DNA of 64,000 nt from Mesaphorura yosii. Its lineage: Eukaryota > Arthropoda > Collembola > Poduromorpha > Tullbergiidae. Made by a program: the position numbers and the translations under genes. The notes beneath the pieces were generated by a model that ran no database searches, had not been told where the DNA came from, and saw only the letters and a program-made list of their open reading frames with translations. The stretch is from the NCBI GenBank assembly GCA_009869945.1, contig WIXG01000067.1, positions 62,001 to 126,000 of the forward strand. Direction: 5' to 3'. Below, piece by piece: positions 16,061 to 19,965 of this stretch (within the stretch, counting starts at the first letter, position 1; every line of letters begins with the position of its first letter).

Positions 16061-19000
16061 ATGGCGGCTTCTCGGCGCTACTCGTCAATCAATTCTTGTC
16101 TTTTGCGGTTAAAAACGTTGCAAGAAAGGTCCAACTTAGCCTACACAGTCCGAGCTCAGTCGCGCACGTTAGAAATGAAGACTAAGCAGATATTGGTCAG
16201 TCGTGCATGGATCGCGAAGAAGCTCAAGCGCTACGATGACTTGTACGCGTGCATGCGGGCTGTCTCGCAGTCCGGCGAGTTCCTCACGAAGAAGGAGCGC
16301 ACACTCTTCTACCTGGCCTACCAACACATTCTCAAGCCGTACCGCGACGGATGGTACAAGCTGCTCGTCATCTCCAGACTCGTCGATGGCAGTCAGCGCA
16401 AGATGCAGCTCACAAAGGAGTACATGAACTTCGTGGAGCGCCAGTGGATGGAGTACTCCATAGAGGCAGTCAACGCAATCGACACGCTCCTCGTGCGCGC
16501 CAACCGACCGCGACCGAAAATATTCTACTTGAAGATGCGTGCGGACCTGACGCGGTACCTCATCGAGATTTCTGGCTCTGCAAAAGCCCGGCGCAAGCGA
16601 CTGCTGAAGGAAACGAAGTCCGCGTACGTGGAGGCGAGTCAGCTCTGCGAAGAGAAGCTCAGTCCCATTCATCCGCTTCGGTTGGCGGTCGCTTTGGCCC
16701 ACGCTGTCTATTTGGCTCACGTTAAAGGCAAGAAGGAAATGGCCATCAATTTGGCGAAAGCAGCGCTCACCGAAGCAAAAAAGAAGCTGTCGCAGGATAA
16801 GACGGAGATCAAGAGTAAGCTGAAGAAAGTCACTGCCCTGTTGCAGTTGTTGCGAGACAATATCGTGTTCTGGGCGCCACGTGGCTCGGATGAAGACGAA
16901 ATCAATGGACCGATCAAAGAGGCCAAGATGTTGAGTCGAAACGACTACATGGCCGCAGGTGCTGGCGCTTTGGCGGGAGGCAAGAGCAAAGCAGCCCTCA
17001 AAGGCACGGTTGAGGGCAAGTACGGGCGACCAACCCTTGTGGACGAGTACGAAGTCGACATGGCTGAAGAAGCGAGCACGCTCGCCAACCAAATTGTCTT
17101 AATCGAACAATTTAACTCACCACCGCTGTCTGAGGAATTGTCTTCGACTTCTGAAGATGGAAACGAGGAGGTCGAAGAGGAGGAAGAAGAAGATTTGGAG
17201 CCAAGACTGAGCGAATTGCTAAAGGGCGAAGACGAACTACGCGAAGAAGTAGAACAAATTCAAGAGGAAGGCAGTGAAGAGGAGGAGGAAGAGGGTGAAG
17301 AAGAGGAGGGCGACCTTCATCTGGATGATGAAGGTCAATTTCGAAAGTCTTCAGTGCCCGCTCCAGCACCGGGGCCAACAAAGCTAGTCCCACCAGGCGG
17401 AATAACCCCGTTTGTCTTCACTCCATTTGAGGACGATCTCCTGTACAAAAAGGTTCAGCAGGAGGAAGAATACTTGGCTGAGCTTGCTGCAAATAAAACG
17501 ACCGTACTGCAGCGTGAAGAGCTTATCGCCATCAAGGCGGCAGCAAAAGCGACCGAATCGGAACTTGACACAGGGACGATTCCAAGCAAAAGCACGACTG
17601 TGCTCGGCGAGAAGTTGTCGGACGAGGGATCGACATCGGAAAGCAGTGAGACGGAAGCGGGCGAAGACGACCGATACTCTTCGGACAACGATCAGGAGAC
17701 AGAAGATCGACTTGTTGAGCAAATCCTAGACGAATTCTTCAAGGTAGAACTTGCAAAGATTCCTCAACCTGGAGATGAGACCTCGTCGATGACTGAATCG
17801 TGCGCGTCGTCGGTGTCTTCGGGGCGGAGTGTCAGTTCAACGGGTTCAGTGATTACTGTTGCTTCTTCGTACTCTGGAGCCATTTCTAGAATGTCGAGAT
17901 CAACAATTACCAGCGAGCAGCAGAAACGGAAAGCAAGCAAAGCCAAGAGTCCAGAAGAAGAAGAACCTGAAATTGATGAGGAGGAAGCGGTGGAGTCGGA
18001 TGAAGAGGTACTGGAAGGAGAAGTGGAGGAGCCTAAAGATGAGCTCGAAGAGAATGACCAATTTGAGCCAAGTGACAGTCTCCTGGATATTCAAAGCTTG
18101 GGCTCTGACTCCGATTTCATGGACAATTACTTTGATGACCACGATCAAGACGACTCTGGGCATATCGAAATTGAGGAGCCAGAATCCGAGGAGAGCGAAG
18201 AAGAAGAAACTGTTGAAGAGGAGGAAGAAGAAGTTGCCGATGAAGAGAAAGGAGAGCCGTCGGCCTCCAAGGCATCCGTCGATACTTCCGACAAGCCACG
18301 GAAGCATAAACATAACACACGTTCTCACTCACGAATTGGCTCGAAATTCGGGTCAGAGGGGGTTTCAACGTCTTTTGAAGACTCCAGAGCCTCACCAGCA
18401 TCGATCTCGTCCCGCGCTTCAGTAAGTTCTGGCAGCGTGTCATCTTCAAGCGTCTCAACAACGTCTACGAAGGAGAAGGCTTCCAAAAAGTCGAAAAAGC
18501 GAACAGGAGCTGGCGATTATTTTCATCCGCTTCCACCAGGTCCCAAATCAGCGTTCGACCAGCGCAAATACGTCGATGAATTCTCGGCTGTCGTTCAGAA
18601 TGTGGAAGCAGGCTTGGGCGATTTTGAGTTTAGCCCAGAACGGTTCAAGGAAATCGACCGGGTGCTGGACTTCCTCGAGGACCAAGAAGAGCGACGAGAA
18701 CTCGCTGAGACCGAAGGCCACCGAATGGAAGTGCGGGACATGATCGTAGAAGATTCACTCGTGAAGCTGATGTTCACCGACTTTCGAATTGTGTACCCGG
18801 AGTACGATCACTACATAACTACTGGTGTGAATATTGCGGAGGAGGAGAACGACGACGAGTCGGAGGAAGAGTCGGAGGACGAGACGAGAAGAAACCAGCG
18901 CAGAATGTCTTCGGCAGCCGGCGCCGAGCGAGAAGACGCAGCGACAAGAAACGAGACGGAAGACAAAGCTGAGATTGACTGCTTGCTCGAATATCCGGAC

Positions 19001-19318
19001 GAGTTCAAAGACTACCAGGAAGCGCACTTCAAGGCGGAGTACGTCAAAATCGAGCAACCATTTCGCAGCAGGTTTGGACGATACCAAAAATCCGCTGGTG
19101 AATACGAATACAGAGGCGAGTACGACGACCTGGAAGTGGTTGACGCAATTCTGCAGCCGCGACTAACTGAAGCTGGCACCGGTCTGGACGGCAGTCGCAG
19201 TCACGCTTCCATTGACGACACGCTCAAGCCATCAAAGTCGATTCGGAGTGTGAGGTTGAGCGAGAAGAAGCCGGATTCAAAATCTAAAACTCGGGTGTCA
19301 GTGCTTAGAAAGAAATGA
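16061..19318 (+). CDS. Divergent 14-3-3 domain fused to a long acidic tail (intronless)
   Basis: One uninterrupted exon of 1,085 residues from ATG 16061 (ATGG context; no earlier in-frame ATG). Residues about 38-273 align with the whole 14-3-3 fold: KRYDDLYACMRAVSQSGEF, RTLFYLAYQHI (signature 1), KIFYLKMRADLTRYL, PIHPLRLAVAL and LLQLLRDNIVFW (signature 2). By the zeta numbering, R56, K120, R127, Y128 and N224 are kept (R95, K158, R165, Y166, N267). K49 is Gln (Q88) and N173 is Ala (A213), so phosphopeptide binding should be weakened or altered. A roughly 36-residue extension precedes the domain. Residues from about 345 onward are a Glu/Asp/Ser-rich, probably disordered tail with Ser clusters. 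Two more ordered blocks interrupt it, at about 820-925 (LPPGPKSAFDQRKYVDEF to PEYDHYITTG) and 968-1030 (Tyr-rich). Ordinary 14-3-3 proteins are about 245 residues, so this is a fusion. Lack of introns suggests a retrocopy origin (inference). Function unknown. Confidence 0.88.
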   Translation: MAASRRYSSINSCLLRLKTLQERSNLAYTVRAQSRTLEMKTKQILVSRAWIAKKLKRYDDLYACMRAVSQSGEFLTKKERTLFYLAYQHILKPYRDGWYKLLVISRLVDGSQRKMQLTKEYMNFVERQWMEYSIEAVNAIDTLLVRANRPRPKIFYLKMRADLTRYLIEISGSAKARRKRLLKETKSAYVEASQLCEEKLSPIHPLRLAVALAHAVYLAHVKGKKEMAINLAKAALTEAKKKLSQDKTEIKSKLKKVTALLQLLRDNIVFWAPRGSDEDEINGPIKEAKMLSRNDYMAAGAGALAGGKSKAALKGTVEGKYGRPTLVDEYEVDMAEEASTLANQIVLIEQFNSPPLSEELSSTSEDGNEEVEEEEEEDLEPRLSELLKGEDELREEVEQIQEEGSEEEEEEGEEEEGDLHLDDEGQFRKSSVPAPAPGPTKLVPPGGITPFVFTPFEDDLLYKKVQQEEEYLAELAANKTTVLQREELIAIKAAAKATESELDTGTIPSKSTTVLGEKLSDEGSTSESSETEAGEDDRYSSDNDQETEDRLVEQILDEFFKVELAKIPQPGDETSSMTESCASSVSSGRSVSSTGSVITVASSYSGAISRMSRSTITSEQQKRKASKAKSPEEEEPEIDEEEAVESDEEVLEGEVEEPKDELEENDQFEPSDSLLDIQSLGSDSDFMDNYFDDHDQDDSGHIEIEEPESEESEEEETVEEEEEEVADEEKGEPSASKASVDTSDKPRKHKHNTRSHSRIGSKFGSEGVSTSFEDSRASPASISSRASVSSGSVSSSSVSTTSTKEKASKKSKKRTGAGDYFHPLPPGPKSAFDQRKYVDEFSAVVQNVEAGLGDFEFSPERFKEIDRVLDFLEDQEERRELAETEGHRMEVRDMIVEDSLVKLMFTDFRIVYPEYDHYITTGVNIAEEENDDESEEESEDETRRNQRRMSSAAGAEREDAATRNETEDKAEIDCLLEYPDEFKDYQEAHFKAEYVKIEQPFRSRFGRYQKSAGEYEYRGEYDDLEVVDAILQPRLTEAGTGLDGSRSHASIDDTLKPSKSIRSVRLSEKKPDSKSKTRVSVLRKK

Positions 19319-19965
19319 ATTATAAACCAAATGGAGTAAATGTAATTTCACGTAATAAATGACAATACGTATTCTGCCTTTGCTTCAATTTCATGGGATC
19401 TTCAGATGCCTGCCATTAAACCCGAGTTATGATCTTAGCAATTTCTTCTATTCCTACACGGGACGTGAGACAGGAATCGAAGGAACAAACGTACCAGATA
19501 AATCGATCTGTAACGGCTCTGCATTTCAAGGCGCTATGCGAGTCCACTTCATTCCAGAGCCGAGCCAACTATCACCGCTTCAGCTTGCACAGCTACACAT
19601 CGGCTGCGTATGAATGGCGAAGAAAGCGAAAGTGAACCCCCTGGAATTCAGTGAATGCTTTCCAAAGTGTAGACCATCTGGGTAGTAGTGAGTAGTGAAA
19701 GTGAACGTGAAAGCAGTACGCAAACATAAACATTCTCCGTGTTCCGAGTATTCCCATTCTAGCAGTAGTAGCCAAGTGCGGCAATGGCACAGCACAAGAT
19801 TGGATTTCACAAACATTTTACATTTTATGCTCATATTCCACAAGTTAAGTTTAAAGTTCTCTAGTAATCAATTTAGTTCCAGTGAATAGGCGAATACTGG
19901 GTTAGTGTCATTGCTTAAATTTCTACGAGGTTTCACGATGATTACTTAATTAATTGACAATCAAA
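19319..19965. other. Intergenic: 14-3-3-like 3' end and promoter of LolA-like gene
   Basis: AATAAA at 19354-19359, 36 nt after the stop, ends the upstream gene. The remaining 600 bp has no supported coding sequence and must include the 5' end of the gene starting at 19966. Confidence 0.5.
19354..19359 (+). terminator. Poly(A) signal of the 14-3-3 fusion gene
   Basis: AATAAA 36 nt after the TGA, implying a very short 3' UTR. Confidence 0.65.

What the first reader, a model, noticed from the sequence alone, without database searches (positions are those of the whole stretch)
16061..19318. A complete but altered 14-3-3 domain fused to an 800-residue acidic tail, in one exon
Seen: both 14-3-3 signatures and the overall helix order are present in the first 273 residues, followed by a long Glu/Asp/Ser-rich tail. 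Known: 14-3-3 proteins are about 245 residues and bind phosphopeptides through K49, R56, R127, Y128, N173 and N224. Here K49 is Gln and N173 is Ala while the others are kept, so the groove is half intact. Inference: an intronless retrocopy that gained a tail. The acidic tail, with many Ser sites, could occupy its own groove in cis as a regulatory switch or a client mimic.
Basis: partly seen in the sequence, partly recalled or inferred. Interest (0 to 1): 0.75.

Follow-up and report, generated by a model that had tools for sequence, protein, structure and literature searches.

The report
Charge-flipped 14-3-3 protein with acidic tail
In a small arthropod genome, one of the five 14-3-3 genes found has become an apparently single-exon gene whose 14-3-3 part has turned from acidic to strongly basic and carries an 800-residue acidic tail, which suggests that it no longer works as an ordinary phosphopeptide adapter.

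Summary

The domain's charge is inverted: net +25, pI 10.1, against -5 to -9 and pI 5.1-5.6 in the six other 14-3-3 domains compared. Resampling paralogue-like substitutions never reached the shift (0 of 20,000). Besides K49Q and N173A, E180 and D213 are lost, and dimer contacts are weakened. The "signatures" are degenerate.

Most likely this is a fast-evolved, possibly retroposed paralogue whose basic body is masked by its own acidic tail, an exaggeration of the known autoinhibitory C-terminal stretch. Rivals: a polyanion-binding scaffold, and a Cp14b-like phospho-tail lock. Transcription, conservation and species could not be tested.

The parts
16061..19318 (+). single open frame, 1085 aa plus stop: basic N-terminal extension, basic 14-3-3 domain, acidic tail
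16061..16183 (+). residues 1-41, basic extension (net +6); M39 lies about where other 14-3-3s start, so translation could also begin there; predicted helical
16184..16873 (+). residues 42-271, 14-3-3 domain, net +25, pI 10.06; Q88 (K49), R95 (R56), R165 (R127), Y166 (Y128), A213 (N173), H220 (E180), K256 (D213), N267 (N224)
16880..19315 (+). residues 274-1085, acidic tail, net -114, 17.6% Glu, 8.1% Asp, 12.2% Ser; no Pfam match above a cut-off, no PDB match at E 1
17342..17359 (+). RKSSVP (residues 428-433), the only RxxS/TxP site of the tail; not above chance
18506..19315 (+). residues 816-1085, tail end with helices predicted at very low confidence; no second copy in the genome for the two parts of it searched (816-928, 971-1070)
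19354..19359 (+). AATAAA, poly(A)-signal-like hexamer that begins 36 bases past the last base of the stop codon

Best explanation
This is a fast-evolved, apparently single-exon 14-3-3 paralogue, possibly a retrocopy. Its domain keeps the 14-3-3 helical fold but has lost the lysine and asparagine that clamp a phosphopeptide, and its dimer contacts are weakened. Its surface has turned basic (+25) while the chain has a long acidic, mostly disordered tail (-114). The likely working: the tail folds back on the basic body by bulk electrostatics and masks it until another polyanionic partner, or a change in tail phosphorylation or salt, displaces it. Shown by computation: the fold, the residue losses, the charges, the open frame without visible introns. 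Inferred: the tail-body contact, a monomeric or altered dimer state, and any regulation.
Against: No structure shows the contact: 740 of 1085 residues have pLDDT under 50, most of the tail among them, and pTM is 0.38. Opposite charges within one chain do not prove binding. R56, R127 and Y128 are kept, and G53K may partly replace K49 one helix turn away, so phosphate binding may persist. The resampling treats sites as independent. No relative of the tail was found in the collections searched, so neither tail nor charge is shown to be conserved; transcription was not tested. The dimer argument is limited: epsilon and C57 also lack K85, and isoforms have one to three salt bridges (PMC9523730, passage).
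Confidence: 0.42

Rival explanations
1. Polyanion-binding scaffold: the basic 14-3-3 body binds acidic outside partners (nucleic acid, acidic protein tails), and the tail is a disordered spacer or docking strip rather than a cis-inhibitor.
For: Domain net +25, gained over many helices; RRKR (residues 177-180) and KKSKKR in the tail look like nuclear signals (resemblance recalled); an acidic strip would suit a chromatin or RNA protein (inference).
Against: Runs of four K/R are no more than chance (1 seen; 577 of 2000 shuffles reach it). A -114 tail on the same chain should compete with outside polyanions.
Confidence: 0.27
2. One reading: a phosphorylated serine of the tail sits in the protein's own groove like a client, as in Cryptosporidium Cp14b.
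For: Precedent Cp14b: own phosphorylated C-terminus in the groove of one subunit, helices A and B merged in the other (PMC3154893, abstract and passages). My model also merges helices A and B (H2-71). RKSSVP at residues 428-433 resembles mode I.
Against: One such site is no more than chance (0.32 expected); no strict mode I, II or III motif. K49Q and N173A weaken contacts that such a peptide uses. The helix merger has pLDDT 50-61 at residues 41-70. The Cp14b authors expect most other 14-3-3s not to bind their tails this way because those tails are mostly Asp/Glu (PMC3154893, passage), which applies here too.
Confidence: 0.13
3. Decaying gene: a 14-3-3 copy under relaxed constraint with no set function; charge and tail are drift.
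For: Very long branch (6.49 changes per column); no relative of the tail found; codon-choice evidence for the tail is weak.
Against: 1085 codons without a stop while 300 first-order simulations reach 308 at most; fold-defining residues kept so that Pfam and fold matches stay strong; directional charge change beyond resampling of paralogue substitutions.
Confidence: 0.1
4. Two genes or a wrong model: the 14-3-3 part and the tail belong to separate transcripts.
For: GC3 falls from 0.65-0.79 in residues 1-300 to 0.46-0.68 in residues 301-1000; RNA evidence is missing.
Against: One frame through both with no stop; A(A/T)TAAA hexamers lie after the stop (19354, 19415) and at one place inside (17492), not near the boundary; no in-frame intron-like span by my uncalibrated criteria.
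Confidence: 0.05

Closest known systems
Canonical metazoan 14-3-3 zeta / epsilon (YWHAZ, YWHAE; own genes on C12 and C220)
   Same: Pfam PF00244 over nearly the whole profile, same fold, R56-R127-Y128, N224, W228
   Different: 32-35% identity; K49, N173, E180, D213 and E89 changed; domain basic instead of acidic; 812-residue tail instead of about 15-40; no visible introns
Cryptosporidium parvum Cp14b (PDB 3EFZ; PMC3154893, abstract and passages)
   Same: strongly diverged 14-3-3 with a self-binding tail; helices A and B merged in one subunit, as in the low-confidence model here
   Different: Cp14b's bound tail is a short phosphorylated LLTSAFF end, not mostly acidic; here 812 acidic residues, K49 and N173 changed; self-binding here is inferred
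Autoinhibitory acidic C-terminal stretch of 14-3-3 (PMC9523730, passages)
   Different: 15-40 residues there, 812 here; the whole body is basic here, not just the pocket
Cryptosporidium parvum Cp14a (PDB 2O8P; PMC3154893, abstract and passages)
   Same: 14-3-3 thought incapable of binding phosphopeptides
   Different: Cp14a lacks a C-terminal tail and keeps the classical dimer

Membership tests
14-3-3 family (Pfam PF00244) | match to the family profile | tested here: met
   E 1.5e-45, 155.9 bits, cut-off 33.2, profile 2-222 of 223
14-3-3 family (Pfam PF00244) | 14-3-3 helical-bundle fold | tested here: met
canonical phosphopeptide-binding 14-3-3 | phosphate pocket K49, R56, R127, Y128 | tested here: not met
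   3 of 4 kept, K49Q; the six others in A1 have 4 of 4
canonical phosphopeptide-binding 14-3-3 | backbone clamps N173 and N224 | tested here: not met
   N224 kept, N173A
canonical phosphopeptide-binding 14-3-3 | dimer with salt bridges E5-K74, R18-E89, D21-K85 (pairs recalled) | tested here: inconclusive
   one partner of each is lost (E5I, E89Q, K85F), E89 in the window row alone; but epsilon and C57 also lack K85 and K74, and isoforms have one to three bridges; the dimer itself was not tested
canonical phosphopeptide-binding 14-3-3 | acidic protein of about 245 residues | tested here: not met
   domain pI 10.06; 1085 residues
canonical phosphopeptide-binding 14-3-3 | binds phosphoserine peptides | not testable with these tools
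   needs protein
Cp14b-like self-locked 14-3-3 | own tail bound in own groove | tested here: inconclusive
   tail pLDDT mostly under 50; motif count at chance
Cp14b-like self-locked 14-3-3 | helices A and B merged | tested here: inconclusive
   one helix 2-71 in the model, pLDDT 50-61 at 41-70
retrogene | lacks the introns of its relatives | tested here: met
   0 visible against at least 5, 3, 3, 1 in the four other genes; no in-frame intron-like span by uncalibrated criteria
retrogene | identifiable parent | tested here: inconclusive
   five placements tested, none rejected, p-AU 0.118-0.492
retrogene | target-site duplication and poly(A) remnant | not tested
   expected to be eroded at this divergence

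The most novel reading that the evidence does not exclude
A 14-3-3 domain that has changed its ligand class: from an acidic phosphopeptide adapter to a basic polyanion-binding module that carries its own 812-residue acidic competitor on the same chain, so that the whole fold and not just the groove is gated by charge.
Probability: 0.33. Interest if true: 0.72.

Novelty: new variant of a known kind. Interest (0 to 1): 0.52.

Why it matters
14-3-3 proteins are among the most conserved and most uniform eukaryotic adapters: acidic, short, dimeric. A natural copy that inverted the charge of the whole domain while keeping the fold, and carries a matching acidic tail, would show that the fold can be turned to a different ligand class. 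It would also be a natural, extreme version of the autoinhibitory 14-3-3 C-terminus, and it can be tested with two purified fragments.

Tried and rejected
Tail homologues: the tail has no Pfam match above a cut-off (one chance match, PF21328, E 0.17), no PDB match at E 1; the whole protein has none in the plasmid collection; residues 816-1085 have none in viral contigs (13 stretches matched a pattern, none encoded a relative); three tail parts (residues 280-362, 816-928, 971-1070) find only themselves in the own genome. Scans with the 14-3-3 alignment A1 gave one locus in viral contigs and two in genome contigs; the open frames read there end soon after the domain, with no long tail.

Fold of the tail end alone (residues 816-1085): mean pLDDT 39.2; not used for a fold search.

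Phospho-motif enrichment in the tail: none. Nuclear-signal enrichment: none.

Codon choice as proof that the tail is translated: weak. Tail 0.027 per codon, domain 0.057, N-extension (residues 1-38) -0.024, training pieces 0.036-0.091, against mean -0.016 (sd 0.040, maximum 0.073) in 118 windows that I took as non-coding without checking them; 6 of 7 training pieces were used, one dropped for a wrong frame.

Parentage tree: 9 rows, window end branch 6.49, four of six inner branches open; no placement resolved.

Species: COX1 not found; 66 matches to the R&R cuticle family, 26 to hemocyanin-M; no 7tm_6 odorant receptor match, which shows nothing by itself. I take it as an arthropod and go no further.

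Literature on tailed, atypical or degenerate 14-3-3s: searches (no paper); I saw listings, plus the passages named in the report. Nothing like this protein appeared in those listings; that is no proof that it is not in print.

Full report
What was checked. The genome holds 66 matches to the R&R cuticle family and 26 to hemocyanin-M, so I take it to be an arthropod; the species was not determined. Of 124 open frames of 90 codons or more in the window I gave 20 to Pfam; among them MED14, an ABC transporter, a PCMT-type methyltransferase, a CID domain and SLBP match above cut-off, so the gene sits among ordinary animal genes.

The frame. 16061-19318 (+) reads 1085 residues and a stop. The other five frames hold 28 to 55 stops each, and 300 first-order simulations of the same composition gave at most 308 open codons. 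An AATAAA hexamer begins 36 bases past the stop. M1 is the first ATG of the open frame; M39 falls about where other 14-3-3s begin, so either may be used. The model makes residues 1-40 helical with block pLDDT 74-91, which does not settle it.

Groove and dimer. Against zeta (alignment A1: window, four own paralogues, two PDB rows): R56, R127, Y128, K120, L172, N224 and W228 are kept; K49Q, N173A, E180H, D213K, G169A and S45Y are changed. The six other rows all have K49, N173, E180 and D213. For the three dimer salt bridges (pairs recalled) one partner of each is gone: E5I, E89Q, K85F; S58 is Gly. Only E89Q is telling, for epsilon and C57 also lack K85 and K74, and isoforms have one to three bridges (PMC9523730, passage). 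One open point is G53K, one helix turn from position 49, which may partly restore a positive charge; I had no coordinates to measure this. That the phosphate is held by K49, R56, R127 and Y128 and the backbone by N173 and N224 is stated in PMC9523730 (passages).

Charge inversion. Over the same columns the window domain has 47 K+R and 22 D+E (net +25, pI 10.06); the six others have net -5 to -9 and pI 5.05-5.64. The diverged bacterial copy in L016 is acidic too (net -16 over 251 residues, tail included). Against the zeta row of 7exe the window differs at 151 of 226 positions with +31 charge, while C289 and C57 differ at 104 and 112 of 227 with -2 and -1. Resampling the 288 differences of epsilon, C289 and C57 gave mean -2.7, sd 6.9, maximum 27; +31 was reached in 0 of 20,000 draws. 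Sites are not independent, so this is a guide and not a strict probability. By helix (boundaries recalled) the gain lies in A (+5), F (+4), H (+4), C (+3), I (+3), the H-I loop (+3), E and G (+2 each), B and the E-F loop (+1 each); D falls (-1).

The tail. Residues 274-1085: 17.6% Glu, 8.1% Asp, 12.2% Ser, net -114; whole-protein pI 4.72, tail pI 4.34. It has no Pfam match above a cut-off and no PDB match at E 1. Three tail parts find only themselves in the own genome. Phospho-motifs: one RxxS/TxP (expected 0.32; 28% of 2000 shuffles reach one), strict mode I 0, mode II 0, mode III 0, RxxS/T 9 (expected 7.5), CK2-like 29 (expected 36). So the serines do not point to the groove.

Gene history. 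Introns in the modelled coding parts: zeta (C12) 5, epsilon (C220) 3, C57 3, C289 1, window 0. The paralogue models were joined by hand and those of epsilon and C57 stop just after the domain, so their counts are lower bounds. This fits retroposition, but stepwise loss is not excluded. The tree of nine rows leaves the window gene on an end branch of 6.49 changes per column, unplaced; five groupings were tested and none rejected (p-AU 0.118 to 0.492).

How it may work. Ordinary 14-3-3s carry an acidic C-terminal stretch of 15-40 residues that can interact with the positive pocket, acts in some isoforms as an auto-inhibitor, and in zeta is displaced by phosphopeptides (PMC9523730, passages). Cp14b of Cryptosporidium holds its own phosphorylated C-terminus in one groove and merges helices A and B in the other subunit; its authors think most other 14-3-3s unlikely to bind their acidic tails in that way (PMC3154893, abstract and passages). 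Here the body has become basic over most helices and the tail is about twenty times longer and strongly acidic, while the phosphopeptide clamp is damaged. The simplest reading is electrostatic masking of the body by its own tail, opened by a competing polyanion or by phosphorylation or salt. The model does show one helix 2-71 where helices A and B should be two, as in one Cp14b subunit, but pLDDT there is 50-61 at residues 41-70. The main rival is a polyanion-binding scaffold with the tail as spacer. Neither is shown.

Limits. No transcript, no relative from another arthropod, no coordinates of the model, and no protein experiment. The codon-choice test of the tail is weak. If related genomes lacked the tail or the charge, the claim of function would fall.

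Noticed in passing
L016:1830-2681 (Candidatus Thiobius zoothamnicola MAG, JAPQLC010000003.1; also L019): Intact, intronless 14-3-3 gene (PF00244, E 1.4e-73) in a bacterial ectosymbiont of a ciliate, on a 268,565-base contig and flanked by bacterial genes (Cys/Met PLP enzyme, DUF3530, DUF2269, epimerase/DoxX): looks like a eukaryote-to-bacterium transfer. In a sample of 195 genomes of its order, drawn from a larger group and its own included, only its own matches. The genome paper PMC10952691 has no occurrence of '14-3-3' in its main text; PMC5726717 reports other, human-like bacterial hits (passages).
   Followed up: partly
L012 (G000:C12:440500-450000), reverse strand: The zeta gene has two alternative exons for residues 142-196, probably mutually exclusive, as recalled for Drosophila 14-3-3 zeta.
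   Followed up: no
L010:4054-5072 (G000:C289:76053-77071): Another diverged 14-3-3 paralogue, with the phosphopeptide residues kept, one intron in the coding part and a longer acidic tail of about 45 residues.
   Followed up: partly
L011 (G000:C57:211500-220500), reverse strand: Epsilon-like diverged paralogue (groups with epsilon, 84/71 support); its second intron appears to be of the GC-AG type.
   Followed up: no
L015:1650-2549 (JAIYDP010000280.1, labelled Verrucomicrobiaceae MAG): Epsilon-like 14-3-3 gene that seems to have two short introns: probably eukaryotic contamination of a bacterial MAG.
   Followed up: no
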